DNA from: Nitrospira sp.
GTDB taxonomy: Bacteria; Nitrospirota; Nitrospiria; Nitrospirales; Nitrospiraceae
Length of the DNA stretch: 64,000 nucleotides
Assembly (NCBI GenBank): GCA_029194675.1
Contig: JARFXP010000002.1
Coordinates: 310,001 to 374,000, forward strand
Reading direction: 5' to 3'
In this document: positions 31,640 to 47,597 of the stretch, piece by piece
Layout of the letters: every line of letters starts with the position of its first letter
Numbering within the stretch: position 1 is the stretch's first letter
Notes under the pieces: generated by a model
What the model was told of the DNA's origin: nothing
Seen by the model: the letters and a program-made list of their open reading frames with translations, nothing else
Databases searched by the model: none
Translations under genes and position numbers: made by a program

Positions 31640-31760
31640 TCGACCGACGGCGGAGAACAAGAAAGGCGGGCTTGACCGCCGGATACCGCCACGGCCACCC
31701 GTTGGCACCGCGTTGACCCCCCATCTCGTTAAGTATAGATTTGCGTCGAGCGAAGGCTGG
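31640..31760 (+). repeat. Leader repeat B, upstream of TIR-FGE copy 2
   Basis: Bases such as AAGAAAGGCGGGCTTGACCG, CCGCGTTGACCC and CTCGTTAAGTATAGATTTGCG match the leader ahead of the third TIR gene (AAGAAGGCCGGATTGACC, CATTGACCC, TTCGTTAAGTATAGATTTGAA), and the last part matches leader A. It starts just upstream of the MntA gene, and the TIR gene begins 84 bases after it. It probably carries the promoter of the cassette. Confidence 0.6.
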
Positions 31761-31843
31761 AAAACATCTGCATTCTGGAGTGCCGAGCAGTTGAAGGGGT
31801 AACGGCACTTCACGAAGCTCGGTGCCTTTGCGGTGGCTAGGTC

Positions 31844-33277: not shown

Positions 33278-33341
33278 CCCTTTGCCCTTTGCTCTTTGAC
33301 CCTTTGTGTTCTGAATTGAAATGCTTTCTTATGAGGTGACC

Positions 33342-33535
33342 ATGGTGAAGAAACCAAAAGATCCTGAGCAGATGCGGTCGGAAATGGGCAAGCTCATTGA
33401 GGCGTTGGAGCTGCCGGAGCTGAACAAGCAGTTCCTGCGCGCGCGGTGGTTGGAGCAGGTCATTTGGATGGACGAGAAGGCGTGGGAGTCCGTGCGGTGG
33501 TCTCGCAGGAGTTCCGGATGGTGCTGGCCTAACCA
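33342..33535 (+). pseudogene. Truncated SLATT/DUF4231 gene, copy 2
   Basis: The 5' end of a SLATT gene, nearly identical to copy 1 at 30343 (EQMRSEMGKLIEALELPEL, ARWLEQVIWMD), breaking off after the WWYR equivalent. The joining sequence GCCTAACCAGCGCCCAAACC before the O-methyltransferase relic is shared with copy 1 (GCCTAACCAGCACCCAGACC). The helices are absent. Confidence 0.8.
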
Positions 33536-33559
33536 GCGCCCAAACCTACGCAGCCCTCG

Positions 33560-33772
33560 CTCGACCTGCTTGCCCCGAAAGGCGTCATCCTGATCGACAA
33601 CGTGCTGTGGAGCGGCGAAGTCTTGAAACAACCGCCGTTGGATGAATCCACTGTAGCCATTCAGGAGCTGAACCGTGTCGTCTCAAACGATCCGCGCGTC
33701 ACCGCCGTCCTGGTCACGATCCGGGACGGGATTTTGGTGGTGAGAAGAGCGGAGAGTTTCGAATCGCGGTGA
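33560..33772 (+). pseudogene. O-methyltransferase 3'-end relic, copy 3
   Basis: It begins at the same codon as copy 2 (LDLLAPKGVILIDNVLWSGEV) and runs open to RDGILVVRRAE plus a short extra tail before TGA. It aligns without gaps to the O-methyltransferase C-terminus but differs from both the parent and copy 2 at many bases. It marks the end of the second TIR-FGE unit. Confidence 0.85.
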
Positions 33773-33790
33773 TTGAGAGCACTCTGTCAA

Positions 33791-34219
33791 TCAACCCCGC
33801 GGCAAGACACTAAAACCTTCACGATGGCCAGCCTCTCGCAATCGTTGGTCGAGGCACACAAACTCTCGGTGAGATGGAGCACCTTGGCACCATACCATCG
33901 CTGCCGCTAATTGCAGAGAATCGGCAGCTCGTAAGGGATGCAGCCGCAAGACGCGAGCAGCCTGTTCTCGAACAGCTTCACTCGGTTCCACCTCTGTCCA
34001 AGCGGCCACCAGTGCTCGCAAGATAATTTGTGCCTGCCTTTCTTCTTCGATGCCGAGAACCGCCTCTCTTCTAAGCCTTGAGAGAGCCGAGAGGCACTCA
34101 ATCGGCGAAGCCCACCACGCGATGATGGATTGGTCTGTCTGAAGCAGTTTTCTTAAGGAAGGGCTTTCGCGTTCCTGAAGGCACAGAGGGATCAGCGCGG
34201 AAGCGTCCCAAAACCTCAT
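33791..34219 (-). CDS. vapC: PIN-domain toxin (VapC-like)
   Basis: A 142-residue PIN ribonuclease. The acidic residues expected in the active site are visible: Asp in RFWDASAL near residue 5, Glu in PIECLSAL near 41, Asp in RAADSLQLAAA near 99, and Asp in CLDQRL near 124. These toxins cut RNA. Its start overlaps the stop of the antitoxin gene by four bases. The pair is on the minus strand right after the third O-methyltransferase relic. Confidence 0.9.
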   Translation of the reverse strand: MRFWDASALIPLCLQERESPSLRKLLQTDQSIIAWWASPIECLSALSRLRREAVLGIEEERQAQIILRALVAAWTEVEPSEAVREQAARVLRLHPLRAADSLQLAAAMVWCQGAPSHREFVCLDQRLREAGHREGFSVLPRG

Positions 34220-34506
34220 CGCCCCTCTGACCGATCAGTCAAAATGGCTTTAAGCCCTCGACCCTTTCGATCCTTGGGTCGTGGTAGTTTCCAGAAGCCA
34301 GCCGGTAATTTACCGGTTCCCAAGCGAACCAGCCCGGCACGAGCAAGATCGCGCAGGGTGTCACTCTCATGACTGTCTTTCGACAAGGGCACGAGCTTCG
34401 CGATAGGCTTCCCTCGCTCGACCACCAGTACCTCGTCACCGGCTTTGACCTTGGCAAGACAGGCACTCAGGGTGGCTTTCAGCGTAGAAACTGCAGCACG
34501 TTTCAT
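34216..34506 (-). CDS. vapB: Phd/YefM-type antitoxin
   Basis: A 96-residue protein. The first 55 residues follow the Phd/YefM pattern (AVSTLKATLSACLAKVKAGDEVLVVERGKPIAKLVPL), which binds operator DNA. The C-terminal half, rich in Arg, Lys, Gly and Pro, should bind the PIN toxin. It is the first gene of the pair and probably represses it. It is transcribed away from the third TIR leader. Confidence 0.88.
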   Translation of the reverse strand: MKRAAVSTLKATLSACLAKVKAGDEVLVVERGKPIAKLVPLSKDSHESDTLRDLARAGLVRLGTGKLPAGFWKLPRPKDRKGRGLKAILTDRSEGR

Positions 34507-34664
34507 GACGACTCCTTAGTGCATGTACATGTGACCAATATAGTCCATTCAGAAGAACGGTGCAAGGAAAGCGAGGATAGATCAACTGCGTGGGCCGCGG
34601 TCTCAGGCTGTCCTCAAACTCGCCGAACCGAAGAAACGACCGTAGGCCTAATCATAGCTCGATA

Positions 34665-34885
34665 TCAAGAAGCACAAGAAGGCCGGATTGACCACCGGAT
34701 ATCGCCACAGATGGCGGTTTGTACCACATTGACCCATCAATTCGTTAAGTATAGATTTGAAGTCGCTGAAAGCCAGGCGAGTGATGGAGCCGTTCTGTGG
34801 GCTGTGGCTAAGCTATGCATAGAGGCGAACGGACCTCAGCTATGCCTAAGCGAGCTTCAGCGATGTCCGATGTGATGACTGGATC
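34665..34885 (+). repeat. Leader repeat C, upstream of TIR copy 3
   Basis: It matches leader B in its first half and leader A in its second half, up to TGATGACTGGATC directly before the TIR start codon. It lies in the 379-base gap between the antitoxin start and the third TIR gene; the first part of that gap (34507-34664) should hold the antitoxin promoter and shows nothing else. Confidence 0.6.
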
Positions 34886-35171
34886 ATGAGCAGGATTCTG
34901 ATCTGTTACGGCCGCGATGACAGCGCCGATGTCACCGGGGCGGATCTACGACCGTTTGGTTCAGCAGGTTGGCCGGGATACGGACTACAAGGATATCGAT
35001 TCCATTCCCTTCGGTGTCGACTTTCGGAAAGATCTCGATGAACAGCTAGTCAAGTGCACTGTGTCCCTCGCGATGATTGGGCGGGACTGGATGAAAAAAC
35101 TGAGCAGTAAGGGTAAATCCAGGCTCGATGATCCGAGGGATTTCGTCCGCATTGAGATCGAGATTGTGTAA
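34886..35171 (+). pseudogene. TIR copy 3, frameshifted and lacking its FGE part
   Basis: MSRILICYGRDDSADVTG is followed by a one-base shift (GTCACCGGGGCGG against GTCACGGGGCGC in the other copies), then the TIR continues (RIYDRLVQQVGRD, DIDSIPFGVDFRKDLDEQ, DPRDFVRIEIE) and stops abruptly. The bases after the stop (TAACCCTGTGGCC...CTTTGACCCTTTG) match the sequence after the FGE stop in copy 2, so linker and FGE were deleted between TIR and the 3' flank. The conserved Tyr-Arg pair of the other copies reads Tyr-Gly. Confidence 0.82.
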
Positions 35172-35270
35172 CCCTGTGGCCTTTGTTCTTTGACCCTTTG
35201 CTCTTGACGACAAGGGCCATGAGAGACGATCAACCTTTCTGTTGCAATGAACGACTCGATGGAGGAGCCT

Positions 35271-35828
35271 ATGAATAGTATAAGCAAGACGACAGACCAT
35301 GAGTCTATGCGGGCCGAGATGGACAAGCTCATCTCATCCCTAGAGTTACCGGAGCTGAACAAGGAGTTCATGCGGGCGCGATGGTTGGAGCTGGTCATTT
35401 GGATGGATGGGAAGGCACAGGAGTCCGTCTGGTGGTATCGCAGGCTACGTCTGGCGACGATCATCGGCGGCGTGATTGTACCGGCGTTGGTCAGTTTGAA
35501 TGTCGGCAGCGAGATGCAAGGACTGATTCAAGCGATCACGTTCATCGTCAGCCTTGCGGTGGCGATGAGTGCGGCCGTGGAGGAATTCTTTCGCTACGGC
35601 GAGCGATGGCGACACTATCGGCGGATGACCGAGTCACTCAAGAGCGAAGGATGGCAGTTTTTGCAACTGAGCGGAAGCTACGCCAACCAAACCCACATTC
35701 AAGCGTACCCGACCTTCGCGGCACGGGTTGAAGGGTTGAGCCGTGAAGAAGTTGAGTCCTACATCACGCAGGTGTTCACAGAAAAAAAGGAGACGAACGA
35801 CAAAATAGACGCACCCTCTACCACGTGA
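35271..35828 (+). CDS. SLATT (DUF4231) membrane protein, intact
   Basis: A 185-residue protein: a soluble N-terminal helix region (ESMRAEMDKLISSLELPEL), then two membrane helices (about 62-82 and 90-108), then a C-terminal helical part (ERWRHYRRMTESLKSEGWQF). This is the SLATT plan; such proteins are thought to form pores that kill the cell when an associated sensor is triggered. The start has GGAGG five bases upstream. It is the full-length form of the two fragments at 30343 and 33342 and follows the third TIR copy, so TIR(-FGE) plus SLATT is the ancestral cassette. Confidence 0.87.
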   Translation: MNSISKTTDHESMRAEMDKLISSLELPELNKEFMRARWLELVIWMDGKAQESVWWYRRLRLATIIGGVIVPALVSLNVGSEMQGLIQAITFIVSLAVAMSAAVEEFFRYGERWRHYRRMTESLKSEGWQFLQLSGSYANQTHIQAYPTFAARVEGLSREEVESYITQVFTEKKETNDKIDAPSTT

Positions 35829-35944
35829 AAGGATAGGTGCTCGTGTCGACTTGTTGACACGGTTTCTCATCGGCAGTAGCCTGGCGCAGGCGTTGCCACT
35901 GAACGGATTGAGGTCGCGCCACCCGCCAGTCACCGAGGACTTGG

Positions 35945-37189
35945 ATGTCCAAAAACGTCTTCATTTCCTCAACTTTCAAAGATCTTGAATCGTTTCGCAG
36001 GACGGTCATTGACGCTGTCAGGCAGTTAGGTGCCGTTGATGTCTCCATGGAGCACTTTGGAGCACGCGACGATCGCCCGAAGGATGAATGTATCAAGTTG
36101 ATCCGTGAACGGTCGGATGTCTTCGTGGGGATCTATGCCCATCGATATGGGTACGTCCCTGATGGGGATTCGATTTCGATTCTCGAAGCAGAATATGACG
36201 CGGCGACATCGGCCCAGGTGCCTCGCTTTATCTACATGCTGAAAGACGAAGCGGCTTGGCCGGCCGATCTCAAGGATTCCGGGGAGTCGGCAACGAAGCT
36301 GTCGGGCTTCAAACAGCGGTTGCTGAAACTGCACATCGTGCAACGGTTCACCAATAAAGACGATGTTGCGACGCATGTGGCGGCTGATCTCGGGCGATAT
36401 TTTTCAGAAGGGGTCATCGCCGCTGACGGATGGCATCGAGGGATTCTGCACGAACCACCGCCCAATTGGGTGGCGCCGCTCGCGCAGAATCGCCGGCGTT
36501 ACAAGGTTGTGGCGTTCGACCTCGACGGTACATTACTTCGGGGAGACCAGTATCAATTCTCTTGGGAACTCTTCTGGAACGGCCTCGGTTTTTCAGGGAA
36601 GATACAGAAAGACTTGATTCGAGAGTACCGGAACAAAGCCCAACAAGGGGAGGGTCGAGCACAACGGGTGCTCGCGTATCGAAACTGGTGCCAGCAGGCC
36701 TGTCAGAAGTTTATGACGAGGAAAGTGACCAGAGCGCAACTGACCCGGATGGTGGCCTCGCTCCGGCTCACCGTGAATTGTTGCAGCACACTGAAAGCCC
36801 TGCGGGATGAAGGTATTGTGTTAGCCATTGTCTCGGGTGGAGTCAGCCTGTTGTTGGAGGAGAAATTATCGGACTTTCAAGATCTCTTTGACTTTGTATT
36901 CATCAATGAACTCCTCTTTGATTCCCGTGGCTACCTAAACGATGTGGTGTCAACCGAGTATGACTTCGAAGGCAAAGCGGAAGCGTTGGCGTATGTGTGC
37001 CAACGGGTCGGGTGCGAACCGAAAAGCGAGGCTGTTTTTGTCGGAGACGCATTTAATGATGAAACGATCATGCTGTCGGTGAGTTTGGCGATCGCCTATC
37101 CTCCCAAAGATAAGGTTGTCGAGGGAATCGCCACGCCGATTGAAGAGGACGACCTCGAACTTGTCCGTCAACAGATCGTCAAGGAGTGA
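35945..37189 (+). CDS. DUF4062 domain fused to HAD-family phosphatase
   Basis: A 414-residue protein. Residues 1-165 are a DUF4062 domain (KNVFISSTFKDLESFRRTVID, RDDRPKDEC, SDVFVGIYAHRYGY), usually the N-terminal part of STAND-type defence NTPases. Residues 185-410 are a HAD hydrolase: FDLDGTL with Asp 192 and Asp 194, the Ser/Thr segment LAIVSGGVSLL, a Lys in the FEGKAEAL region and FVGDAFNDE near the end, most like SerB-type phosphatases. Joining a conflict-system sensor to a phosphatase in place of an NTPase is unusual. GAGGA precedes the ATG by six bases. It follows the SLATT gene by 116 bases on the same strand. Confidence 0.85.
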   Translation: MSKNVFISSTFKDLESFRRTVIDAVRQLGAVDVSMEHFGARDDRPKDECIKLIRERSDVFVGIYAHRYGYVPDGDSISILEAEYDAATSAQVPRFIYMLKDEAAWPADLKDSGESATKLSGFKQRLLKLHIVQRFTNKDDVATHVAADLGRYFSEGVIAADGWHRGILHEPPPNWVAPLAQNRRRYKVVAFDLDGTLLRGDQYQFSWELFWNGLGFSGKIQKDLIREYRNKAQQGEGRAQRVLAYRNWCQQACQKFMTRKVTRAQLTRMVASLRLTVNCCSTLKALRDEGIVLAIVSGGVSLLLEEKLSDFQDLFDFVFINELLFDSRGYLNDVVSTEYDFEGKAEALAYVCQRVGCEPKSEAVFVGDAFNDETIMLSVSLAIAYPPKDKVVEGIATPIEEDDLELVRQQIVKE

Positions 37190-37277: not shown

Positions 37278-37525
37278 ATGAAACCCCATGCCTTTGTGGC
37301 GATGCCGTTTGGCGTGAAGTTGGCGTGAAGAAGGACGGTCAGGGCAACGAGGTTGATTTCAATCGCGTCTATGCGGAGCTGATCAGACCGGTGCTGGAGG
37401 CCACAGGGGTGGAGGTCTTTCGGACGGACGAAGAAGAGTCTGCAGGGGATATTCGCACAGATATGTTTCAAGAGTTGCGTCTGGCAGCTCTCGTCGTAGT
37501 CAATCGGGTGCGGGGCCTTGCCATC
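37278..37525 (+). pseudogene. Relic of a deoxyribosyltransferase-like (DUF4071-associated) gene
   Basis: MKPHAFVAMPFGVK is followed by the 11-base unit TTGGCGTGAAG repeated twice in tandem (about 37310-37331), which shifts the frame. Taking one unit out gives a continuous frame: KKDGQGNEVDFNRVYAELIRP, DEEESAGDIRTDMF. This matches the N-terminus of the protein at 42237 (FVLMPFGRK, DFDAVYAELIAP). Similarity ends near 37500, before the ADLTGANANVFYELG part, so the 3' part is lost too. Confidence 0.75.
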
Positions 37526-38099
37526 ATCGTGGCAGCGAGAGTACATTGCCCAACACTTAGACTGTAAACGTTTTCGAAATCGTGCTACTAGCGGGGAATA
37601 GAAGTTTGGAGTGAACATAACCAATGAGGATGCACATGAAGCTCATGCGCGTCGATCTTCGAAGCAAGCAACCCGTAACCTTCACCAGTTCCCCTCAATC
37701 TGGGTCTCTGCGGTTCGGATACCAACAACGAATACGTGGTGGTATTTGCTCGCGACAAACGCTGGGCAGGTATCTAGTGGGCAAGTTTATGCGGATTCTC
37801 TCCCGTCAGCGTTTTTGCGAATCGGTCAAGTAACATATCAAACAGCATGACTTCGCTGCCTTCAATGTTTGGGAGAGGACTTGGGCAAAACGGCTGCCCA
37901 CCTAGTTCAGAGCTGGTTTGGAATATGGCCGTAAGCGGTGCTGTTATAAGAAGAAGATAAGTGTCCGTGGTGGATTACGGAGAATCCCGTGACGGCGGCA
38001 ATCCACTTTGTCGACCGTGAGTGAACACCCAACACTGATGCAGATGATCTCCAATATTCTTGCGGTACGGAATTTTCATCTAACATGCGGTAACCTGGG
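37526..38099. other. Gap without a convincing gene
   Basis: After the relic there are short frames on the plus strand around 37611-37850, but none shows a ribosome site, a recognisable motif or consistent codon use. One short frame ending near 37772 (NNEYVVVFARDKRWAGI) looks protein-like and could be another gene fragment. The last 100 bases should hold the promoter of the following operon; no clear -35/-10 pair was identified. Confidence 0.5.
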
Positions 38100-38771
38100 A
38101 TGCATATGACCCTGCGGGACTGCTATTTCTGTGGGCAGATCAAAGGACGACCTGAACGTGACCTCATCGCCCAGATGCTCCCTGGGTCAAAATACGTTCG
38201 TCGAGTGATGATGGAAAGCGACGCGTTCGCGGTCATACCAAGCCTCGGTCAACTGACCGATGGTCACGCCTTGCTGTGCCCCAAATGGCACGTGCGTAGC
38301 TTCGCCGCGCTTGGTCCTGATCTGCACGTTGAGTATGACGCCATGAAACGACGATTGCAACAGGCGCTCAAAGCGCTCTACGGCGACACGGTGCTGTTGT
38401 TCGAACATGGTATGGCTGCTACGGGCCGTCGGATTCCTTGCTCGGTGGATCACGCTCATTTGCATTTTGTGCCACTGCCTGCGGAGGTTGCGGCCACCTT
38501 GGTTCCTGTCCTTCGCTGGCGAAGGTTCGACGGCTCGATTGCGATGTTGAGTAGCCTGGCTGGCGGTGACGAATATCTTCAACTTGAGACTGCCGACGGT
38601 ATCTGTCGCATCGCGACACAGGGCGCGGAAGGTTTCGAGTCGCAACTCATGCGCAGGGTGATTGCTGCGAGGGCAGGGAGCGAAGGGGAGTGGAACTGGC
38701 GCGATCTGCCCAAACCAGACGCTGCGCATGCCACCTGGCAGCACTTCAGGTTGCGTTGGCGGGGGCTTTGA
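38100..38771 (+). CDS. HIT-family nucleotide hydrolase/transferase, first copy
   Basis: A 223-residue HIT protein. The N-terminal CYFC may bind zinc, GHALLCPKWHVRSFAAL is the usual HIT strand-helix, and the active-site triad HAHLH is at residues 118-122 with all three His present. HIT enzymes split nucleoside phosphoramidates, dinucleotides or nucleotide-linked adducts. The C-terminal 90 residues are not part of the core fold. It is the first gene of a tight operon; its stop shares one base with the next start. Its neighbours bind or cut nucleotide sugars, so its substrate may be a product of theirs. Confidence 0.88.
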   Translation: MHMTLRDCYFCGQIKGRPERDLIAQMLPGSKYVRRVMMESDAFAVIPSLGQLTDGHALLCPKWHVRSFAALGPDLHVEYDAMKRRLQQALKALYGDTVLLFEHGMAATGRRIPCSVDHAHLHFVPLPAEVAATLVPVLRWRRFDGSIAMLSSLAGGDEYLQLETADGICRIATQGAEGFESQLMRRVIAARAGSEGEWNWRDLPKPDAAHATWQHFRLRWRGL

Positions 38772-39967
38772 TGAACAACTATTGCTTTGTCATCATGCCC
38801 TACGGAAGAAAGAAGGGTGTGGGTGGCCGGCGGATGATCGATTTCGACAAAGTGTATGAAGACATGATTGTCCCAGCAGTCGACGGCTTCCTCGATCTAC
38901 ACTGCATACGGTGCGACCGCATCGACGAGCCGGGTTCGATCCACAAGCGGATGATGACGCAAATTTTCGAAGCGCGAGTCGCCATTGTTGATACCTCCAC
39001 CCTGAACGCCAATGTGTTCTATGAACTTGGGGTGAGGCATGCCCTCACGCGTTCGGTCACGGTACTGATTCAGGAGGAGGAAACCGAATCGCCGTTCAAC
39101 ATCGCCGGGATGGCCACAATTCGCTACGGCGCAAACAAACAGAGCATGGCGCATACGAAGGACACCATACGGGCCTACGTCAGGAACGCATTGTCCAACC
39201 CCAATGGCACGGATAGCCTTGTGTATGAGGCTTTGCCGCAATTGAGGGTGCAACGGACGCAACAACAGGTCTCGAAGTTCACCGTCACACACTATCGCCT
39301 CAAAGGCTGTCCTGAAACCGGAATAAGCCGACGTAGGGTGGGATTCGTTACGGGTGATCGGCGTGACATCAATGTAGGCCAGATATGGGTCAATTCTGAG
39401 AACACCAATATGCAGATGGACAGTTTCTACGGCAAGTCCACCTCCGCGACTATTCGCTACCTTGGCGCCGAAAAAGACGCCATCGGTATGGTGGCCCGCG
39501 ATACCATCGGTGACGCGCTGCGCGCAAAGCTGGATGGTCGTCTCGTGGTCGATCCGACGACCGTGATCCCTACAACGGCCGGGGCGCTGGAAGCAACCAA
39601 TAACGTCAAGTGGATCTTTCACGTTGCCGCGGTTATCGGCCAGCCGCTGGTGGGGTATAGACCGATTGAACAGGTTGATCAGTGCGTGAAGGCAGCGTTG
39701 CGACTTGCCAATCACCAGGATTTCGCAAACGACGAGATTCGCTCCATATTGTTTCCCATCTTCGGCACCGGACCGGGGGGCGGCGATCTGGAATCCACGA
39801 TCAAGGCATGCCTTGATGCGGCAGTAGAACATTTGGGGCGCAGCTGTGAACAGCCAAGGGGGATGCGTGACATCTACTTCTATGTTTGGGGAGCGCGGGA
39901 TCTTGAGATCTGCACAACGGTTGCCTCCAAGAACCCCGCACTGCTTGCCGATGACAGCCCCGTTTGA
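38771..39967 (+). CDS. Deoxyribosyltransferase-like domain fused to a macro domain
   Basis: A 398-residue protein. Residues 1-130 are a nucleoside-deoxyribosyltransferase/TIR-like domain (NYCFVIMPYGRKKG, DRIDEPGSIHKRM, STLNANVFYELGVRHAL). Residues 165-380 fit a macro domain: GDRRDINVGQIWVNSENTNM, VIPTTAGALEATNNVKWIFHV, RSILFPIFGTGPGGGDLE. Macro domains bind ADP-ribose or related nucleotides. The fusion suggests a protein that makes or cuts a nucleotide-sugar bond and senses the product. It overlaps the genes before and after by 1 and 17 bases. Confidence 0.85.
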   Translation: MNNYCFVIMPYGRKKGVGGRRMIDFDKVYEDMIVPAVDGFLDLHCIRCDRIDEPGSIHKRMMTQIFEARVAIVDTSTLNANVFYELGVRHALTRSVTVLIQEEETESPFNIAGMATIRYGANKQSMAHTKDTIRAYVRNALSNPNGTDSLVYEALPQLRVQRTQQQVSKFTVTHYRLKGCPETGISRRRVGFVTGDRRDINVGQIWVNSENTNMQMDSFYGKSTSATIRYLGAEKDAIGMVARDTIGDALRAKLDGRLVVDPTTVIPTTAGALEATNNVKWIFHVAAVIGQPLVGYRPIEQVDQCVKAALRLANHQDFANDEIRSILFPIFGTGPGGGDLESTIKACLDAAVEHLGRSCEQPRGMRDIYFYVWGARDLEICTTVASKNPALLADDSPV

Positions 39968-40820
39968 AGTGGAAATCGGCATCGGCCCCCTGTCCGATGT
40001 CTATTTCGATTGCGACGAAACCCTCATACCCTGGGGGGTTGTTGAAGCCTTGGACGTTCGTCACATCCGAGCAGTCGGTTCGTTCACCGATCGACCGAGA
40101 CGCATACACAACGCTGCCACCAGACTGCGTGGGTGCTCCGGTCTTGTGTGTGCTTCGCTCAATACGGAGATCGCTGAGGTGGCTCGAGAGCAAGGGCTTC
40201 CCGTCCTCGCCATCTCCGATCAGTCTTCAGCCAATCTGGACGAGTTCTGCCGAGCGGTGGTTGCTCATCCGTGCACCGTGCGCTCCTACGCTTTCTACAT
40301 CGGTCGCCTGGAGCGTGATTTTGTCCATGCGCGCGAGGCGATTCGGGTTGCAGTCGAAAGCGAGGCTGGAATGCATTTCCTGTGCATCGACGACGGCTGT
40401 CATACCACCAATGTCGCTGGCATTCGCGAACGGACGCGGTTGCTGGTTCGGCATGCCGCTTTCTTGATCGCTGACCTGACGCTGGGCATCGAGAATCCGA
40501 GGTGCGAGAACCCCAGCCGGGCTCATGAGATCGGTATGGCCATTGCCTATGAGCGGCCGCTGTTCCTAAGCAGTCAAGAACCGCGGCGCTATCCATATTT
40601 TTCCGTGGCCGACATGCAGATGAGCTTCTGGGCGCGTGAAGATGAACTTGAGACAGCCCTACGTAGCTGGATACGCACTCACCGAATGGCGGTGGCGCGG
40701 CGGGTGCTTAACTACTCGCTGGCGAAAGCAGTTGTGTCGGAGCCCAAATTTCAATTTGATCCTAACCGACGCTTCATCGGGCCGAACTTCGCAGATCAGT
40801 CGGTACGGGTGGAGTGTTGA
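39951..40820 (+). CDS. Two-domain protein with deoxyribosyltransferase-like C-terminal half
   Basis: A 289-residue protein. Residues 118-235 have the same fold pattern as nucleoside deoxyribosyltransferase-like conflict proteins: YIGRLERDFVHAREAI, HAAFLIADLTLGIENPRCEN, HEIGMAIAYERPLFL. The N-terminal 110 residues (DVYFDCDETLIPWGV, GLVCASLNTEIAEVAREQGLPVLAIS) look like another Rossmann-type unit that I cannot name. The ATG at 39951 lies inside the end of the macro gene, so translation is coupled. It probably acts on the same nucleotide pool as its neighbours. Confidence 0.75.
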   Translation: MTAPFEVEIGIGPLSDVYFDCDETLIPWGVVEALDVRHIRAVGSFTDRPRRIHNAATRLRGCSGLVCASLNTEIAEVAREQGLPVLAISDQSSANLDEFCRAVVAHPCTVRSYAFYIGRLERDFVHAREAIRVAVESEAGMHFLCIDDGCHTTNVAGIRERTRLLVRHAAFLIADLTLGIENPRCENPSRAHEIGMAIAYERPLFLSSQEPRRYPYFSVADMQMSFWAREDELETALRSWIRTHRMAVARRVLNYSLAKAVVSEPKFQFDPNRRFIGPNFADQSVRVEC

Positions 40821-40827
40821 GGCCAAC

Positions 40828-41469
40828 GTGTCCACTGCTTGTGTTTACTGTTTACACAATGGGCATCTGCGCGACGAGCAGATCCTTCTGCGCGGCGATA
40901 CTTTCTACCTGTGTGCGCCACGAGGACAACTTGTCGAAGGGTTCCTGGCGATAGCACCCTATCGCTGTAAGGGCTGTCTGGCTCAGCTGCCAGCTACCGA
41001 CATCGACGAGTTATTGGCCATGCAGGATCTGGTTCGCGACTTTTATGCCAGGAGCTACCACACGCAGGCGGTGATCTTCTATGAACAAGGCCGCGCTGGT
41101 GGCGGGGCGCTCACCGACTTCAGAGAGCGTTTCCCGCTACATGCGCACCTGTGCGGCTTACCGGCTGTTGTTGATCTCCACGGGTACCTCCGCCACACAT
41201 ATTTGCCGGTGCCGGTGGGAAGCCTCGCCGGGTTGGCAACAGCTGTGGGTGGGCAGCCATATCTATATGTCGAGGCATCCGATCTATCGCTGGCGTACCT
41301 CGCGCGGCGAAATGACCAAGCCACCGTGCTGGAACGGGCCCGTTTGAAGCCTGTCATCGCGCAGTTGATGGGCATCAGCGAGCGAGGAGACTGGCGAGCC
41401 TATCCCGGAGACCGCGAACTCCAACACCTGGTTGAGAACTGGAGGCACTATTGGGATGGGCAAGCATAA
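40828..41469 (+). CDS. HIT-like protein, second copy, third His replaced by Cys
   Basis: A 213-residue protein that starts at a GTG seven bases after the previous stop. It has the N-terminal CVYC pair, a second pair CKGC, the strand GFLAIAPYRCKGCLAQL in place of GHALLCPKWH, and PLHAHLCGLP where the HIT triad should be: the first two His are kept, including the likely nucleophile, but the third is Cys. A HIT protein on the operon's first gene suggests an enzyme plus a diverged binder. GGAG is seen upstream. It overlaps the next gene by 19 bases. Confidence 0.72.
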   Translation: MSTACVYCLHNGHLRDEQILLRGDTFYLCAPRGQLVEGFLAIAPYRCKGCLAQLPATDIDELLAMQDLVRDFYARSYHTQAVIFYEQGRAGGGALTDFRERFPLHAHLCGLPAVVDLHGYLRHTYLPVPVGSLAGLATAVGGQPYLYVEASDLSLAYLARRNDQATVLERARLKPVIAQLMGISERGDWRAYPGDRELQHLVENWRHYWDGQA

Positions 41470-42080
41470 AGGTCTTGCAGCGCAAGGCCCAGTTGCAAAA
41501 AAAAGCAGGTGAGGCTGATGCCGCCGCAAAGACACTCCTCACCGCGATGCGCATTGCCGCAGCAAGCCTGGCGGATTTGCATGGGACCCTGGGTGGTGTG
41601 TTTTGGGACCAGGGGCGGCTTGCAGAAGCCACAAATGAGTATGATCGTGGGTATCGGATCGAGCAACGCTACGGCATCGTCAGCTCCTACAATGCACTCA
41701 ACCGACTGTTGACGCGTCTGATGGCGGATGGAGCAAAACCAGATGGCAAAGCAGTGGCTAAGGGTATTCGCATTCAAGGTGGAGTCGACATCAACACGGA
41801 ACTGCGGCGCCTGCAGCTGCAGTTGACAGGCCAATTACGTGGGATCGATGCAGTTGAATTCTGGACGGCCGGCGACCTCGCGGTAGTCGCGGCGCTTAAC
41901 GATGACCTACGGGCGATGAGGAGGGGGCTCGCGTTGTTTATGGTGCCATCGACGCCGCGCTCCGCATACGAGGCATATCTGAAGACGGTAGCCAGACTGC
42001 TCAGCAGCAAGCATCCACGCAATCGTGGTTTGCCCATCTTGCATCGTGAATTGTTGCGCGGTGTAGACCAGCGGTGCTGA
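41451..42080 (+). CDS. TPR-like helical protein
   Basis: A 209-residue protein starting at TTG inside the end of the HIT-like gene. Residues 10-100 contain helix pairs of the TPR type (RKAQLQKKAGEADAAAKTLLTAM, GVFWDQGRLAEATNEYDRGY), and residues 100-209 are a second helical region. It has no catalytic motif. It likely serves as a scaffold joining the enzymes of this operon. Similar repeats occur in the proteins at 42237 and 45987. Confidence 0.7.
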   Translation: MGWASIKVLQRKAQLQKKAGEADAAAKTLLTAMRIAAASLADLHGTLGGVFWDQGRLAEATNEYDRGYRIEQRYGIVSSYNALNRLLTRLMADGAKPDGKAVAKGIRIQGGVDINTELRRLQLQLTGQLRGIDAVEFWTAGDLAVVAALNDDLRAMRRGLALFMVPSTPRSAYEAYLKTVARLLSSKHPRNRGLPILHRELLRGVDQRC

Positions 42081-42236
42081 GTCTTATGCACTCTTGAAGA
42101 ACCGCGTGGGCGCGGTCCACGCGAATACGTTCAGTGTGCGAGGCTCAGGTGGGGAGACGTACTGTGATTCGCCATTGAGAAGCCAACTGCCGTTGTTTCA
42201 GTTCGTGCTACGGCGGCATGCCCGGAGGGTCCTGGA

Positions 42237-43580
42237 GTGACGACGCCCCATCCGCTCTGCTTTGTGCTGATGCCATTCGGCCGCAAACCAGGCCTCGGCT
42301 GCGGCATCGTCGATTTCGATGCCGTGTATGCGGAGTTGATCGCACCCGCGATAGAAAAGGCCGGTCTTGAACCTTTGCGTGCCGACGAAGAAATGGCGGG
42401 CGGCATCATTCACAAACCGATGTTCGAGCGGCTGATTCTGTGCGACTATGCCGTCGCCGATCTTACCGGCGCCAATGCCAATGTCTTTTACGAGTTGGGT
42501 TTGCGGCACGGAATCAAGCCGGCTAGCACGGTGTTAATTTTTGCTGATAGCGGCGGGGTGCTTCCGTTCGATGTTGCTCCACTCAGGGCGATACCCTACA
42601 AGCTCGGTCCCGATGGGAAGCCAACCGCAGCGACTGAAGGCCGGCAGGCGCTGGCGGAAAAGTTACTCGCTGCCCGAAGCGGGCTTGTTGACAGCCCGGT
42701 GTTTCAGCTGATCGATGGTTTTCCGGATATCCAGCGGTTGAAGACAGATGTCTTCCGTGATCGAGTAGAGTATGCGCGGCAGCTGAAGGAACGGTTGGCA
42801 AATGCGCGGGAGTCAGGATGGGAAGCACTAAAGGTGATCGAGACTGAGCTCGTCGAAGCTCCAGGCGGTCTGGCGGATGCTGAGGGCGGGGTTGTCATTG
42901 ACCTCTACCTCTCCTACCGTGCGATTAAAGCGTGGGATGCCATGATCGCGTTGGCAGATAAGATGTCGAAGCCTTTGGCGGCAACACCTTTGGTTCGGGA
43001 ACAATTGGGTTTGGCCCTAAACCGCGCTGGCCGTGGTGATGAGGCAGAGAGCGTGCTCCTGGAATTGATCACGCGGCGTGGCACGTCCAGCGAGACCTGT
43101 GGAATGCTGGGACGGGTCTACAAGGATCGCTGGGATGCGGCGGTGAAGTGCGGCGACACCTTTGCGGCGCGTGGGCTGCTCAATAAAGCGATCGATGCCT
43201 ATCTTCGTGGGTTCGAAGCCGATTGGCGCGACGCCTATCCCGGGATTAATGCTGTGACGCTGATGGAGCTGAAAGACCCGCCCGATGCCAGGCGCGAGCG
43301 GCTCATACCGGTGGTCGCATACGCGGTGGAGAGACGTATTGCGTCCGGCAAACCGGATTATTGGGACTATGCCACGCTCGTGGAGCTAGCGGTACTTGCC
43401 AAAGACGAACAAAAGGCCGAGTCAGCCCTGGCCGATGCGCTTGCGGCCATGCGCGAACCTTGGGAACCGGAGACGACGGCCAGGAACCTAAGATTGATTC
43501 GCGAAGCCCGCGAGCGGCGCGACGAATCTATCCAGTGGGCGAAGGTCATAGAAGCTGAATTGGAGCGTCGCTCGGAATAG
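42237..43580 (+). CDS. Deoxyribosyltransferase-like domain plus TPR/DUF4071 (MAP3K TRAFs-binding-like) region
   Basis: A 447-residue protein. Residues 1-130 match the N-terminal domain of the macro fusion: PLCFVLMPFGRKPGLG, RADEEMAGGIIHKPMF, ADLTGANANVFYELGLRHGI. Residues 200-440 are TPR-like helices with LGRVYKDRWDAA and GINAVTLMELKD, the pattern of DUF4071, the bacterial relative of the N-terminal region of animal ASK-type MAP3 kinases. Such proteins are effectors in bacterial conflict systems. The GTG start has GGAG nearby; the 156-base gap ahead has no gene. A broken relative is at 37278. Confidence 0.85.
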   Translation: MTTPHPLCFVLMPFGRKPGLGCGIVDFDAVYAELIAPAIEKAGLEPLRADEEMAGGIIHKPMFERLILCDYAVADLTGANANVFYELGLRHGIKPASTVLIFADSGGVLPFDVAPLRAIPYKLGPDGKPTAATEGRQALAEKLLAARSGLVDSPVFQLIDGFPDIQRLKTDVFRDRVEYARQLKERLANARESGWEALKVIETELVEAPGGLADAEGGVVIDLYLSYRAIKAWDAMIALADKMSKPLAATPLVREQLGLALNRAGRGDEAESVLLELITRRGTSSETCGMLGRVYKDRWDAAVKCGDTFAARGLLNKAIDAYLRGFEADWRDAYPGINAVTLMELKDPPDARRERLIPVVAYAVERRIASGKPDYWDYATLVELAVLAKDEQKAESALADALAAMREPWEPETTARNLRLIREARERRDESIQWAKVIEAELERRSE

Positions 43581-43740: not shown

Positions 43741-43875
43741 TTGGTTGACCCTGAACAATTACCCAATAACGGCCGATACTTTCAAGACACAATGCATTAT
43801 GGGGAATTAGTTCGTGGGTTCCGCGAGAAGGGTTACATGGCAGATGCCCAAGATTGGAAAGTTGTGGGAGGATAG
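43741..43875 (+). CDS. 44-residue ORF coupled to the TIR gene
   Basis: GGGAGGAG ends four bases before a TTG at 43741 that opens a 44-residue frame, MVDPEQLPNNGRY...QDTMHYGELVRGF...EKGYM, with protein-like composition (Tyr, Phe and Trp spread along it, balanced charges). It stops five bases before the ATG of the TIR protein, and the TIR ribosome site lies inside it. It may be a leader peptide, a small partner of the TIR protein, or the end of a decayed gene. I know no relative. Confidence 0.45.
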   Translation: MVDPEQLPNNGRYFQDTMHYGELVRGFREKGYMADAQDWKVVGG

Positions 43876-43880
43876 CGCTC

Positions 43881-44744
43881 ATGCCTGGCTCAAATTCAAT
43901 GGATATAATGGATATAAAGGGTGCCAAGATTTTCATCAGCTATTCACGCAGCGACCATGAGATAGCTGCTCGAATTGCGAATGCACTCAAGAAAACCCAA
44001 TTTGAGGTATGGCTAGATATCGATCGCATTCAGCCAGGCCAGAATTGGGTTCGGGTCATTGATCAAGCGCTCACTGATGCCGGCTATCTTATTGCCTTGC
44101 TATCCAAAGCTTCCTTGGAATCCCTGTGGGTGCAACAGGAGTGGACAACTGTTCTGACGAGGCAACTGTCAGGCACCAATGGTGGCGTGGTGATCCCGTT
44201 GCGTTTGGAGCCCATTAGTCTGCCAACCATCTTGCGCGCAATGCAGGCCATTGACTTATTCCCTGATTTTGACGAAGGGCTCAAGAAGTTGGTTGGGTTT
44301 CTCTTGTGTGATACCAGGCCTGCCTGGCTCGTTCAGCATGAGTTTCATGCCACGAGGCAGATCGATAACTTGGCCGACTCTCCGTCCTTGCAGACGCTAA
44401 AGACTGAACCCGCGAGATACTCCAATGCTACATGGAACGCGTGGCATCAGGCGTTGCATTCTGAACAAGTCACTGACCCGGCTCTGGCAAAGCTGGACAA
44501 TCGAACCATACGCCGCATTGCTCTGAGATGTCTTAGTCAAGCGGAATTGCAAAGTTTCTGCTTTGACAATGGTATTCAGCCAGGTTCGGTGGCGGGAAAC
44601 AGTTTGAATGAGCAAATTCTTTCTCTTCTTCAGCAGCTATTGAGAGATGGCATTCTGGAGCAGTTCATCAAATGGCTTGCAGAGGAGAGTCCGCGTTGCG
44701 TAGAAAACGCCATCAAGATTTTCATGCCAACTTCTCCGAACTAG
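43881..44744 (+). CDS. TIR protein with C-terminal effector-associated (death-like) helical domain
   Basis: A 287-residue protein. Residues 10-140 are a TIR domain (AKIFISYSRSDHEIAARIA, VWLDIDRIQPGQNW, YLIALLSKASLESLWVQQEW with the candidate catalytic Glu). Residues 200-280 are a helical bundle resembling effector-associated domains: RRIALRCLSQAELQSFCFD, LNEQILSLLQQLLRDGILEQF. Those domains recruit effectors by pairing with like domains on partners. No second copy of such a domain stands out in the window, so the partner may lie elsewhere. GGGAGG precedes the ATG. Confidence 0.85.
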   Translation: MPGSNSMDIMDIKGAKIFISYSRSDHEIAARIANALKKTQFEVWLDIDRIQPGQNWVRVIDQALTDAGYLIALLSKASLESLWVQQEWTTVLTRQLSGTNGGVVIPLRLEPISLPTILRAMQAIDLFPDFDEGLKKLVGFLLCDTRPAWLVQHEFHATRQIDNLADSPSLQTLKTEPARYSNATWNAWHQALHSEQVTDPALAKLDNRTIRRIALRCLSQAELQSFCFDNGIQPGSVAGNSLNEQILSLLQQLLRDGILEQFIKWLAEESPRCVENAIKIFMPTSPN

Positions 44745-44852: not shown

Positions 44853-45036
44853 CCTTTGTTCTTTATTCTTTGACCCGTTGCTCTTGCCCGGAAAATCAGG
44901 AAGGGAACAACAACGTCGGCAACCATTGATGAGGCTTGCAGGTATCTGTCTGGAGCAGTGGCGTGGTTTGATGCCGCGGATAAAGGATGGTTGTAGCCAT
45001 GGCGTGATGTACATTTCTCAAACACAAGGAGGCTTC

Positions 45037-45975
45037 ATGCCACACGTCACATTTATTCATGGACTTTCTAATAAGCCAGCGGCAGACATTCTTCATCAAA
45101 TCTGGCGGCGCGCGCTCGCAAAGGGCAGTGGCGGTTTGGATCTCGGAGCGAAAGGTGTGACCACCAGAATGGTGTACTGGGCCGATGTGGTCTATCCAGA
45201 GCCAGATCCAAATGTAGCTGCTTACGAAAGTACGTCAGAACGAACGGCCCAAGAAGTCGATGCGAGCGGAGATGCGCACATTCCCGTGGGTGAGAACGCC
45301 AAGGAAAAGCGTTTTATCCAAGCGATGCGAGCACAAGACACCAGGATGACCGATGCAGAAATCGAGAAGGCGGGGGACCAGGGCTCGACCGACGAGAGTG
45401 CCACCAAGCTCGAGCGCATTCCCCTTCCGTGGTGGATCAAGAAGAAAGTCATGGAGGCGAAGGTGCGGGACGCCTATCTCTACCTGTTCAACAAGGAGTT
45501 CTCCCCAAGACCAGGCATAGCCTACAAGGTGCAAGACCACATCCGCAAACTGTTCATCGATGCAATCAAAGCTGCGCCAGCTCGTGGTCCACATGTCGTG
45601 GTCAGTCACAGCATGGGGACGATTATTGCTTACGACTGCCTGAAGCGTGTCCCCGGGTGCCCAGTCATCGACGGCTTGATGACACTAGGCAGTCCGCTTG
45701 GCATCGATGAAGTGCAAGATTGTTTGGAGCCGGAATGGTCACGTTCTAACGGATACCCCACATCGCTGATAAGGTCACAATGGGTGAACGTCTACGACCA
45801 TCTCGATGTTGTCTGCGGAGCCGATCCAATAATTGCCAACGATTTTTGCGAAGGGAGTGTCAAGCGTATCCAAGACGTCAGCGTGACCAATGAAGGGGCT
45901 TGGCGCCATTCAATCGTGAAATACTTTGCGCGTGACGAAGTGCGTAACGCCCTACGCCAAGCTCTTGGGTTTTAA
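45037..45975 (+). CDS. Alpha/beta-hydrolase (lipase/esterase-like), 312 aa
   Basis: A 312-residue protein with HVTFIHGLSNKP at the start, an oxyanion-type HG motif, and the nucleophile elbow VSHSMGTI with Ser 192. Possible Asp and His partners are in YDHLDVVCGADP and WRHSIVKYF near the end. Residues 65-150 form a charged insert. AAGGAGG stands four bases before the ATG. The next gene, a TPR-trypsin protein, starts 11 bases later, so the two form an operon. In bacterial conflict systems such hydrolases serve as effectors on membrane lipids; that role is inferred. Confidence 0.85.
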   Translation: MPHVTFIHGLSNKPAADILHQIWRRALAKGSGGLDLGAKGVTTRMVYWADVVYPEPDPNVAAYESTSERTAQEVDASGDAHIPVGENAKEKRFIQAMRAQDTRMTDAEIEKAGDQGSTDESATKLERIPLPWWIKKKVMEAKVRDAYLYLFNKEFSPRPGIAYKVQDHIRKLFIDAIKAAPARGPHVVVSHSMGTIIAYDCLKRVPGCPVIDGLMTLGSPLGIDEVQDCLEPEWSRSNGYPTSLIRSQWVNVYDHLDVVCGADPIIANDFCEGSVKRIQDVSVTNEGAWRHSIVKYFARDEVRNALRQALGF

Positions 45976-45986: not shown

Positions 45987-47597
45987 ATGGACACACAACA
46001 GAAGGCAGACAAGAAGGTCCAGCGCACCAGAGAGTTGCTGGGCCGCGCTCACTGGCCTATGGGAAGTGCAGATGCCCGCGAGGCCTTGCAACTGAGCAGT
46101 GATCTCAAGGACCTGCGCCAGTTTGCCCTGCTCGCAGATCTCAGTGAACGCGTGGTGCGAATGCAGCCCAACGCGATAACTGAGCAAAAAGTTTACGCAC
46201 AGGCCCTGATCGAAACCGGCCAGGCGACCGCCGCGATCGCCGTGGCCGAGAAGGCCTTGGACGGACTCTCTTCCCGTCATAAGGAATGGAACGAGCTCAC
46301 CGGTCTGATTGGACGTGCGTACAAACAAATTGCCATCGACACCGGAGATCCCCATTGTCCGGAAAGCCGAACGGCGCTCGCACGCGCGCTCGACGCCTAC
46401 AGTAAACCTTACAAACGGAATCCGAAAAACACCTGGCATGCCATCAATCTTGTCGCGATTGCTGCATTCGCCAAGCGGAGCGGCGTGGCCATCCCGACGT
46501 CGATCAATCCCACCACACTTGCCAGGAATATCATTGCGACGATCAACCATAAACCAAAGCGTATGCGCGACCGCTGGGATGCGGCGACGTTAGCCGAAGC
46601 GTACTTGGCGCTGCACGATCTGGATGCGGTGGAGCAGTATCTACACATCTATCTCTCGGATTCCAAGATACGCCCCTTTGAGGTCGGTAGTACCCTCAGG
46701 CAATTCAGTGAGGTCTGGGGATTGCGGGACGCCACCGATTCTCGCAGCAAAGGCCTCTTGCAAGCTTTGCGGGCACGGCTCATGTGCCTTCCAGGGGCGC
46801 AGTTACATCTCTCATCCAGTGACGTAGCACTTCAGCGAAAGATGCCTCCGCCGGAGGAACGACAACTTGAAGCAATCCTTGGAAACGAAGGGACCCAATC
46901 CTACGAATGGTGGAAGTGGGGGTTGGACCGTGCCTGCTCGGTGGCCGCCATCTATGCCGGCATCGGGCAGCGTGTGGGAACGGGATTTGTCGTGTCGGCA
47001 CGAGATCTGACGTACGCCGATACGGATGAATTAGTAGTCGTAACGAACTTTCATGTGGTGAACGAAAAAGGAACTAGCAGGGCTCTGAGGCCAAGCGACG
47101 CCCAGATCGTCTTCGAGGCCATCAATCCCCGCAAGCGATACAGCATTAAGGAAATCGTGTGGTCGTCCCCAGTCGACCGTCATGACGCAAGCATCCTTCG
47201 CCTGGCCGAACAGCCTTCCACCGTGACCGCCATCCCTCTTGCCAAGAACCTCCCCATTGTGGAACCGACCGCAAAAGTTTACATCATCGGCCATCCGGGG
47301 GGAGGTGGATTGGAGTTTTCATTCCAGGACAACGCGCTACTCGATCATGAAGGGGTAGAGGGGGGGAAGCCGAGTACGCCCGACGTGTGTCGCCTCCACT
47401 ACCGTGCTCCAACAGAAAAAGGAAGTTCGGGCAGCCCCGTGTTCAATGCCGGCTACTGGGAAGGCATTGCCTTGCATCATGAGGGAGGCATCCTATCAAA
47501 ATTGAACGGCCAGCAAGGGACCTACCCGGCCAATGAAGGGATCTCCCTTCTCTCGATCGCTGAAGCGATTGCCAACAAAAGAAATTATCACTCATGA
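45987..47597 (+). CDS. TPR/DUF4071-like protein with C-terminal trypsin-like protease
   Basis: A 536-residue protein. Residues 1-290 are TPR and DUF4071-like helices (LIGRAYKQIAIDTGD, WHAINLVAIAAFAKR, RDRWDAATLAEAYLALHDLD). Residues 315-530 are a trypsin-fold serine protease with the triad His 356 in TNFHVV, Asp 400 in RHDASIL and Ser 481 in GSSGSP. It has no signal peptide, so the protease acts in the cytoplasm. Proteases of this kind in conflict systems act as initiators that cut partner effectors, and the hydrolase gene just upstream is the obvious candidate. Confidence 0.87.
   Translation: MDTQQKADKKVQRTRELLGRAHWPMGSADAREALQLSSDLKDLRQFALLADLSERVVRMQPNAITEQKVYAQALIETGQATAAIAVAEKALDGLSSRHKEWNELTGLIGRAYKQIAIDTGDPHCPESRTALARALDAYSKPYKRNPKNTWHAINLVAIAAFAKRSGVAIPTSINPTTLARNIIATINHKPKRMRDRWDAATLAEAYLALHDLDAVEQYLHIYLSDSKIRPFEVGSTLRQFSEVWGLRDATDSRSKGLLQALRARLMCLPGAQLHLSSSDVALQRKMPPPEERQLEAILGNEGTQSYEWWKWGLDRACSVAAIYAGIGQRVGTGFVVSARDLTYADTDELVVVTNFHVVNEKGTSRALRPSDAQIVFEAINPRKRYSIKEIVWSSPVDRHDASILRLAEQPSTVTAIPLAKNLPIVEPTAKVYIIGHPGGGGLEFSFQDNALLDHEGVEGGKPSTPDVCRLHYRAPTEKGSSGSPVFNAGYWEGIALHHEGGILSKLNGQQGTYPANEGISLLSIAEAIANKRNYHS

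What the first reader, a model, noticed from the sequence alone, without database searches (positions are those of the whole stretch)
38100..43580. Compact operon of HIT, macro, deoxyribosyltransferase-like and TPR proteins: candidate nucleotide-signal conflict system
Six co-directional genes, five of them overlapping or nearly touching, encode two HIT proteins, a deoxyribosyltransferase-like/macro fusion, another deoxyribosyltransferase-like protein, a TPR protein, and a deoxyribosyltransferase-like/DUF4071 protein. These families make, bind or cut nucleotide-sugar compounds; TIR-type genes that use NAD lie on both sides. I infer a system that generates and reads a nucleotide (perhaps ADP-ribose-like) signal, with HIT enzymes to remove it. 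I do not know this gene order as a described system.
Basis: partly seen in the sequence, partly recalled or inferred. Interest (0 to 1): 0.85.

Follow-up and report, generated by a model that had tools for sequence, protein, structure and literature searches.

The report
Candidate nucleotide-signal operon in defence island
A tightly packed bacterial five-gene operon, in a stretch full of likely anti-virus genes, encodes enzymes that could make, sense and destroy a small nucleotide signal; the parts are of known kinds, but this combination turned up in no other genome examined, and its function is untested.

Summary
Five genes (38100-42080) overlap or lie within 7 nt of each other: HIT1, a DRT-like/macro fusion, a protein with a DRT-like C-terminal half, HIT2, and a weakly TPR-like protein. 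A sixth (42237-43580, DRT-like + TPR-S/MAP3K_TRAF_bd) follows after 156 nt and is probably a separate unit: relatives on 4 of 5 plasmids read sit with TIR and/or DUF4231 genes, as here. The region is a defence island (TIR-FGS, SLATT, TIR-EAD7, TPR-S-trypsin, caspase).

The gene order did not recur. Of 97 non-own loci held (many only ~3.4 kb), none carried homologues of two of the five families, apart from one DRT cross-match. The best DRT-macro relative (41%) lies on a short contig with radical-SAM-like and TIR-FGS genes, no HIT. HIT1 belongs to a rare full-length CWF19L1-like family; the four other carriers among 395 phylum genomes have it in a different four-gene module.

Best reading, inferred: a Thoeris-like circuit in which the DRT-like domain makes an ADP-ribose-type product, the macro domain reads it and HIT1 removes it. 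A macro-TIR fusion beside SIR2 in the same genus and the published Thoeris HIT protein ThsC support the logic. Not a Thoeris member. New variant of a known kind, one occurrence.

The parts
38100..38771 (+). HIT1: full-length (223 aa) CWF19L1-like HIT protein with intact HAHLHFV triad
38771..39967 (+). DRT-like domain (about residues 1-140, NANVFYELG) fused to a macro domain (about residues 168-392)
   Evidence: Pfam Macro 25.2 bits, cut-off 22; model vs macro domains Z up to 18.9; DRT half 35% identical to gene 6
39951..40820 (+). Gene 3: unknown N-terminal half plus DRT-like C-terminal half (residues about 124-252, HEIG)
   Evidence: 3e-8 to a DRT-like protein; 0.054; no other relative found
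40828..41469 (+). HIT2: paralogue of HIT1 (25% identity) with triad HAHLC, third His replaced by Cys
41451..42080 (+). Weakly TPR-like protein (TTG start), last gene of the tight unit
   Evidence: TPR_8 0.0088, TPR-S 0.041; no relative in the 145 other genomes
42237..43580 (+). DRT-like + TPR-S / MAP3K_TRAF_bd protein, 156 nt downstream, probably a separate unit
43854..44744 (+). TIR + EAD7 protein, likely partner of the 42237 gene
   Evidence: TIR_2 107.3 bits; EAD7 30.9, cut-off 32
44878..45975 (+). Alpha/beta-hydrolase-like protein (weak)
45987..47597 (+). TPR-S + trypsin-like peptidase, candidate effector
   Evidence: Trypsin_2 71.7 bits, TPR-S 51

Best explanation
The five genes at 38100-42080 are one operon of a defence island and most likely form a small nucleotide-signal circuit. 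The DRT-like domain of the fusion protein (and perhaps that of gene 3) cleaves an N-glycosidic bond, most likely in NAD+ or a related nucleotide. The attached macro domain binds the ADP-ribose-type product and so switches the complex. HIT1 hydrolyses or transfers the nucleotide and ends the signal. HIT2, with an altered triad, modulates HIT1 or binds without cleaving. The TPR-like protein is a scaffold. Killing or proteolysis would come from neighbours (TPR-S-trypsin, TIR-EAD7, caspase) or from nucleotide depletion. Shown by sequence: gene layout, families, the DRT Glu, the HIT1 triad, the macro fold of the model. Inferred: co-transcription, substrate, signal, direction of each step, anti-phage role.
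For: Tight overlaps and coding frames. Macro family and fold. The DRT profile aligns its NVFYELG motif with the GYELG motif of the DNPH1/Rcl nucleotide N-hydrolases, though weakly (E 0.02). The DRT half of the 41% relative hits Nuc_deoxyrib_tr (20.1 of 28.8 bits) and the CAP12/Pycsar TIR model (18.9 of 24.7), both below cut-off. Two relatives in a Nitrospirales MAG keep the DRT-macro fusion. In a genome of the same genus (G023) a macro-TIR fusion lies beside a SIR2 gene and an nSTAND1 gene: the same logic with TIR in place of DRT. Of the 12 actinobacterial macro loci, five carry both RES NAD+ phosphorylase and CHAT homologues beside the macro gene, as does an S. clavuligerus plasmid. [quoted passage not shown] a HIT protein ThsC joins 2.4% of Thoeris loci and was proposed to form or degrade the signal (PMC8565338, passages); DRHyd and Macro domains are listed among domains of vWA-associated conflict systems (PMC7159879, passages).
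Against: No second copy of the operon was found. The closest DRT-macro relative has no HIT on its 5.4-kb contig, although that contig is short (847 nt upstream). The HIT1 relatives sit in another module or beside dCTP-deaminase-like, ThyX/DHFR or cysteine desulfurase genes, which fits nucleotide metabolism as well as signalling. PADLOC found no Thoeris model for any of the five proteins at E<=0.1. One DRT-macro relative (L045) has Gln where the Glu should be. The authors of PMC11204291 detected no NADase activity for EcThsB2, the tyrosine-type ThsB; whether the DRT domain here has that tyrosine was not tested. No direct test of substrate or phenotype.
Confidence: 0.38

Rival explanations
1. 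Direct effector rather than signal: the DRT-like proteins destroy NAD+ or nucleotides on infection, the macro domain holds the product or the target, and the HIT proteins clear adenylylated by-products; no second messenger exists.
For: PADLOC's nearest models for the DRT half are TIR effectors (1.2e-6); TIR, caspase and trypsin effectors surround the operon.
Against: A macro reader in the same chain and two HIT proteins are more than a plain effector needs.
Confidence: 0.24
2. Nucleotide metabolism or clean-up operon (salvage, removal of damaged or modified nucleotides) that merely lies in a defence island.
For: HIT1 relatives on plasmids lie with ThyX and DHFR (Parabacteroides, as annotated), dCTP-deaminase-like (Pfam), NTP pyrophosphohydrolase and cysteine desulfurase genes (Streptomyces), and genes that I read by eye as cysteine desulfurase and phosphoribosyltransferase (Rhizobium); the PDB relatives of the DRT domain are nucleotide N-hydrolases (weak).
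Against: The nearest HIT1 relatives, in the same phylum, lie in a module whose methylase, tested in G016, matches PADLOC PD-Lambda-5_B at 1.1e-107; the macro domain and DUF4071-type DRT domain point to conflict systems.
Confidence: 0.2
3. No common function: genes brought together by recombination in a hot spot, co-transcribed by accident.
For: No recurrence; the island upstream shows triplicated and decayed TIR-FGS/SLATT units, so gene turnover is high.
Against: Five ORFs with overlaps of 1, 17 and 19 nt, two of them paralogous HIT genes, and codon usage in frame for most argue for a maintained unit.
Confidence: 0.18

Closest known systems
Thoeris with macro-type ThsA, and the HIT-containing 'Thoeris type II' of PADLOC (ThsC)
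   Same: TIR/DRT-like enzyme, macro domain and HIT protein are its parts (PMC8565338, PMC11204291; passages read)
   Different: Here the enzyme is DRT-like rather than TIR, it is fused to the macro domain, there are two HIT proteins plus a second DRT-like protein and a TPR-like protein; PADLOC gave no Thoeris hit for the five proteins
TPR-S / DUF4071 (MAP3K_TRAF_bd) NAD-signal systems (Burroughs and Aravind 2020, recalled; paper not held)
   Same: Gene 6 is a clear member by Pfam and sits with TIR, SLATT and TPR-S-trypsin genes
   Different: Genes 1-5 are not part of that architecture as far as I recall
Macro-TIR + SIR2 + nSTAND1 locus of a genome of the same genus (L043)
   Same: Nucleotide-cleaving TIR-like domain fused to a macro domain
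   Different: TIR instead of DRT, reversed domain order, SIR2 and STAND partners, no HIT found
HIT + membrane protein + D12-type methylase + ~885 aa module (L067, L098, L099, L100)
   Same: Full-length CWF19L1-like HIT protein, up to 41% identical to HIT1
   Different: Shares no other gene with this operon
DRT-macro + radical-SAM-like + TIR-FGS locus in a Deltaproteobacteria MAG (L044)
   Same: DRT-macro relative, 41% over 361 aa; a TIR-FGS gene also occurs in the window island
   Different: No HIT, gene 3 or TPR homologue on the 5.4-kb contig

Membership tests
Thoeris (ThsA/ThsB) | ThsB-type TIR protein in the operon | tested here: not met
   Genes 1-5 have no TIR hit above cut-off; DRT-macro only 14.9 of 24.7 bits to CAP12 TIR; no ThsB model hit
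Thoeris (ThsA/ThsB) | ThsA of SIR2-SLOG or TM-macro type | tested here: not met
   Macro present but fused behind a DRT-like domain; no PADLOC ThsA hit. No membrane-helix prediction was run. ThsA missing from the structural list is not counted
Thoeris type II of PADLOC | HIT protein of the ThsC family | tested here: inconclusive
   No PADLOC hit for HIT1 or HIT2 at E<=0.1; I did not verify that the library holds a ThsC model
TPR-S / MAP3K_TRAF_bd systems | DRT-like N-terminus with MAP3K_TRAF_bd and TPR-S | tested here: met
   Gene 6 only: 156.8 bits (24.1) and 97.2 bits (27.6)
Macro domain | Macro family score and fold | tested here: met
   25.2 bits, cut-off 22; Z 18.9, rmsd 2.5, 184 aligned to 6fy5_B
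MacroD-type ADP-ribosyl hydrolase | Gly-rich loop with catalytic Asp after the NAAN motif (motif recalled) | tested here: inconclusive
   By reading, VNSENTN is followed by MQMDSFYGKSTSATIRYLG, with no GGGVDG; but the profile alignment to PDB starts after this loop and model residues 212-224 have pLDDT under 50
HIT hydrolase/transferase | H-x-H-x-H-x-x triad | tested here: met
   HIT1 HAHLHFV; HIT2 is HAHLC, not met for it
DRT / DNPH1 nucleotide N-glycosidase | Catalytic Glu in the (Y)ELG motif (role recalled) | tested here: met
   Glu in 4 of 5 aligned DRT-like domains incl. DRT-macro and gene 6; L045 has Gln; alignment to DNPH1 at E 0.02. Gene 3 has HEIG aligned to YEVG
DRT / DNPH1 nucleotide N-glycosidase | Cleavage of a nucleoside or nucleotide bond | not testable with these tools
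   needs enzyme assay

The most novel reading that the evidence does not exclude
A self-contained second-messenger immunity circuit in one operon, in which a deoxyribosyltransferase-type enzyme, not a TIR, makes an ADP-ribose-like signal, its own fused macro domain reads it, and two diverged paralogous HIT proteins, one with an altered triad, set its lifetime.
Probability: 0.2. Interest if true: 0.75.

Novelty: new variant of a known kind. Interest (0 to 1): 0.5.

Why it matters
If the circuit works as inferred, it would show that DRT-type enzymes, and not only TIR domains, can make immune signals that macro domains read, and it would make testable the proposal that HIT proteins switch such signals off (PMC8565338, passages). 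DRT-like domains of this type are common in bacteria (matches in 35 of 146 genomes, own included, and in 93 plasmid records), and their substrate is, to my knowledge, unknown. The main limit is that the operon was seen once.

Tried and rejected
Conserved system: searched for and not found. Gene 3: no match in the 394 other phylum genomes, plasmids, viral contigs or genome contigs; the last two find close relatives only. HIT2: none in the 145 other relatives, plasmids or viral contigs (close relatives only). TPR: none in the 145 other relatives. DRT-macro: 35 of 146 genomes matched, own included, but only the own genome and G127 (two copies) far into the macro domain. Macro profile: 13 of 395 phylum genomes, own included (of the other 12 I read the neighbourhood of G023 only), 0 viral contigs, 15 loci in genome contigs from one short pattern. 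Macro part of the fusion protein alone: 0 phage records, 16 plasmid records, all Streptomyces clavuligerus. HIT1: 1 of 145 other relatives, 5 plasmid records, 0 viral contigs (close relatives only), 7 phage records over about half its length. Limits: of the 97 loci in the co-occurrence test many are about 3.4 kb long and some overlap each other, so a neighbour further off could be missed; of 93 plasmid records with a DRT match I read five.

Counter-defence gene carried by a phage: rejected as unlikely, since the macro domain has no phage relative at E 0.01 and the flanks are defence genes; against this, PHROGs families do match the DRT half (5.7e-25) and HIT1 (3.5e-14).

Structure of gene 3: the model failed (mean pLDDT 39.9) and was not searched. 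Its N-terminal half had only chance-level PDB matches (best 0.77), and profile comparison with the DRT alignment was weak (probability 1.6%). The DRT half of the DRT-macro model was barely tested by the fold search, because macro matches fill the list. Promoter and terminator scans found no more sites than shuffles.

Literature: searches for combinations of macro domain, HIT domain, deoxyribosyltransferase, conflict systems, histidine triad and anti-phage gave no paper on this combination (the only joint hit was PMC11204291). A broader search, any two of histidine triad, HIT protein and phage-defence terms, matched 701 papers, of which I saw 15 in the listing. ThsC with Thoeris gave only PMC8565338. 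Passages of PMC8195603, PMC7159879, PMC9503650 and PMC10972558 were seen. The library holds only open-licence PMC papers, and the paper most relevant to TPR-S was not held.
Full report
WHAT IS THERE. The window is G000:C2:310001-374000 of a 5.2-Mb, 16-contig genome. A genome of the same order (G127) has contigs of the same lengths (189282 and 73021), with matching places, as those named Nitrospirales bacterium OFTM313, so the host is probably a Nitrospirales bacterium. Five ORFs run from 38100 to 42080 with overlaps of 1, 17 and 19 nt and one 7-nt gap; a sixth starts 156 nt later. Codon usage trained on 12 well-identified genes of the window favoured the annotated frame in 10 of 12 ORFs tested. 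The exceptions were HIT1 (second by 0.01 to an antisense frame) and TIR-EAD7 (tie).

THE PROTEINS. HIT1 (223 aa) has an intact HAHLHFV triad. It scores just below the Pfam HIT cut-off (20.0 of 21.5 bits) but matches solved HIT proteins (best 6.7e-5). HIT2 (213 aa) scores 31.6-32.3 bits for CwfJ_C_1 (cut-off 21), is homologous to HIT1 over its length (25% identity, 1e-9 for that single comparison) and has HAHLC, the third His being Cys. A profile of eight such proteins matches CWF19-like protein 1 over nearly its whole length (profile positions 9-204 of 214, 2.9e-9). The fusion protein has a DRT-like domain 35% identical to that of gene 6 and a macro domain (25.2 bits, cut-off 22). Its AlphaFold model, from a four-row alignment, has mean pLDDT 68.5; residues 168-392 align with macro domains, best Z 18.9, rmsd 2.5 over 184 residues. 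Gene 3 has no relative found as a whole; its C-terminal half matches a DRT-like protein of a sister genome (3e-8 for that single comparison; 4.1e-5 against the 97 loci), and its N-terminal half is unknown. Gene 5 is weakly TPR-like. Gene 6 is a clear MAP3K_TRAF_bd/TPR-S protein.

ACTIVE SITES. The likely catalytic Glu of the DRT-like domain (NVFYELG) is present in the fusion protein and gene 6, and in 4 of 5 aligned domains; L045 has Gln. The domain profile aligns with DNPH1/Rcl nucleotide N-hydrolases at the same motif, weakly (E 0.02). In the macro domain, VNSENTN stands where the usual NAAN motif lies, and by reading I see no Gly-rich loop with Asp after it; this suggests binding rather than MacroD-type hydrolysis. 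The motif is recalled, the profile alignment to PDB does not cover that loop, and the model is poor there (residues 212-224).

DOES THE ORDER RECUR? Not in what I searched. By tblastn of the five proteins (E<=1e-3) against 97 held non-own loci (105 held at that point; several overlap each other and many are about 3.4 kb long), no locus carried homologues of two of the five families, except that DRT-macro and gene 3 both matched DRT-like genes on L027/L005, which are one place. Most DRT-macro matches covered the DRT half only: 35 of 146 relatives had a match, own included, and only the own genome and G127 reached far into the macro domain. The nearest full relative, 41% over 361 aa, is on a 5.4-kb contig of a Deltaproteobacteria MAG, followed by a radical-SAM-like gene (26.8 of 29.5 bits in Pfam; viperin-like in PADLOC, 3.9e-10) and a TIR-FGS gene. 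The two Nitrospirales relatives have no HIT1, HIT2 or gene 3 homologue in their loci. The remaining 12 loci are actinobacterial macro proteins in which only the macro part matched; five of them carry both RES and CHAT homologues beside the macro gene, like the S. clavuligerus plasmid.

HIT1 LINEAGE. With the profile of eight, 173 of 395 phylum genomes had some HIT match, but full-length matches (E 5.5e-30 or better) occurred in only 5, the own genome included; the next match was 4.7e-12 and shorter. In the four others (G016, G386, G264, G246) the HIT gene lies with a 192-213 aa protein that looks like a membrane protein, a 276-311 aa D12-type methylase and a protein of about 885 aa. The methylase was confirmed by Pfam in G016 and read by eye in the other three. 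The long protein has a PRA-PH or MazG-like region below cut-off in three and no Pfam hit at 0.05 in G016. The G016 methylase matches PADLOC PD-Lambda-5_B at 1.1e-107; the other three G016 proteins match no PADLOC model at 0.01. PD-lambda-5 is a tested anti-phage system described as a compact prophage version of an RM+Abi system (PMC9519451, passages). On plasmids, HIT1 relatives lie with ThyX/DHFR (Parabacteroides), dCTP-deaminase-like and cysteine desulfurase (Streptomyces), PRA-PH (Caulobacter) and, by eye, cysteine desulfurase genes (Rhizobium). This family is therefore often beside nucleotide-handling genes and, in one genome tested, beside a methylase of a known defence family, but was not seen with DRT-macro outside this window.

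GENE 6 AND THE ISLAND. Of five plasmid neighbourhoods of DRT+TPR genes read (of 93 records matched), four have TIR and/or DUF4231 genes close by (Agrobacterium, Acinetobacter, Klebsiella, Rhizobium); one (Aliarcobacter) does not. In the window the same kinds of partner occur: SLATT/DUF4231 at 35247, TIR-EAD7 at 43854, TPR-S-trypsin at 45987, caspase at 48208 and TIR-FGS at 28957. I therefore read gene 6 as belonging to this described type of system (Burroughs and Aravind 2020, recalled; not held), with the five-gene operon lying beside it.

MECHANISM. The combination of a nucleotide-cleaving domain, an ADP-ribose-binding fold and HIT enzymes parallels Thoeris. Macro-type ThsA binds ADPR and imidazole adenine dinucleotide, and some ThsB proteins found only with it have a NDT/DNPH1-like active-site tyrosine, although no NADase activity was detected for the one studied, EcThsB2 (PMC11204291, passages). 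A HIT gene, ThsC, was found in 167 Thoeris loci and proposed to form or degrade the signal (PMC8565338, passages). In the same genus, G023 has a macro-TIR fusion next to SIR2 and nSTAND1 genes. I commit to maker (DRT), reader (macro) and eraser (HIT1), at 0.38. Substrate, signal and phenotype are all untested.

VERDICT. It is not a member of Thoeris: no TIR protein and no ThsA architecture in the operon. It is best filed as a new variant of TIR/DRT-macro nucleotide-signal systems, known from one genome among those searched.

Noticed in passing
L067:7390-12188, L098:3623-8340, L099:4428-9306, L100:6855-11800: Conserved four-gene module: full-length CWF19L1-like HIT + membrane-like protein + D12-type DNA methylase + ~885 aa protein with a sub-threshold PRA-PH/MazG-like region in three of four. 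Present in all four other phylum genomes (of 395) with this HIT; the G016 methylase matches PADLOC PD-Lambda-5_B at 1.1e-107. A candidate defence system of its own.
   Followed up: partly
L043:8676-13015: Macro-TIR fusion followed by SIR2 and nSTAND1-FHA genes in a genome of the same genus.
   Followed up: partly
L044:848-4157: DRT-macro + radical-SAM-like (viperin-like by PADLOC) + TIR-FGS genes in a Deltaproteobacteria MAG.
   Followed up: partly
window 28860-35830: Three tandem units of about 3 kb with TIR-FGS and downstream sequence; the first TIR-FGS gene is intact, the second appears split, the third reduced to remnants beside a SLATT/DUF4231 gene.
   Followed up: partly
window 37278-37567: Apparent broken remnant of a DRT-like (DUF4071 N-terminal type) gene upstream of the operon, by reading; no Pfam hit for the 37280-37564 stretch.
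   Followed up: no
L028:7485-12950 and L047, L048, L049, L051, L055: Streptomyces cassette: macro protein + ~236 aa protein + RES NAD+ phosphorylase + CHAT protein in tandem.
   Followed up: partly
window 35945-37189: DUF4062 domain fused to a HAD phosphatase-like domain.
   Followed up: no
L065:6450-9746 and L066:6444-9744: Streptomyces plasmid cassette: dCTP-deaminase-like (scanned in L065 only) + HIT + ~313 aa unknown + cysteine desulfurase, near a NTP pyrophosphohydrolase gene.
   Followed up: no
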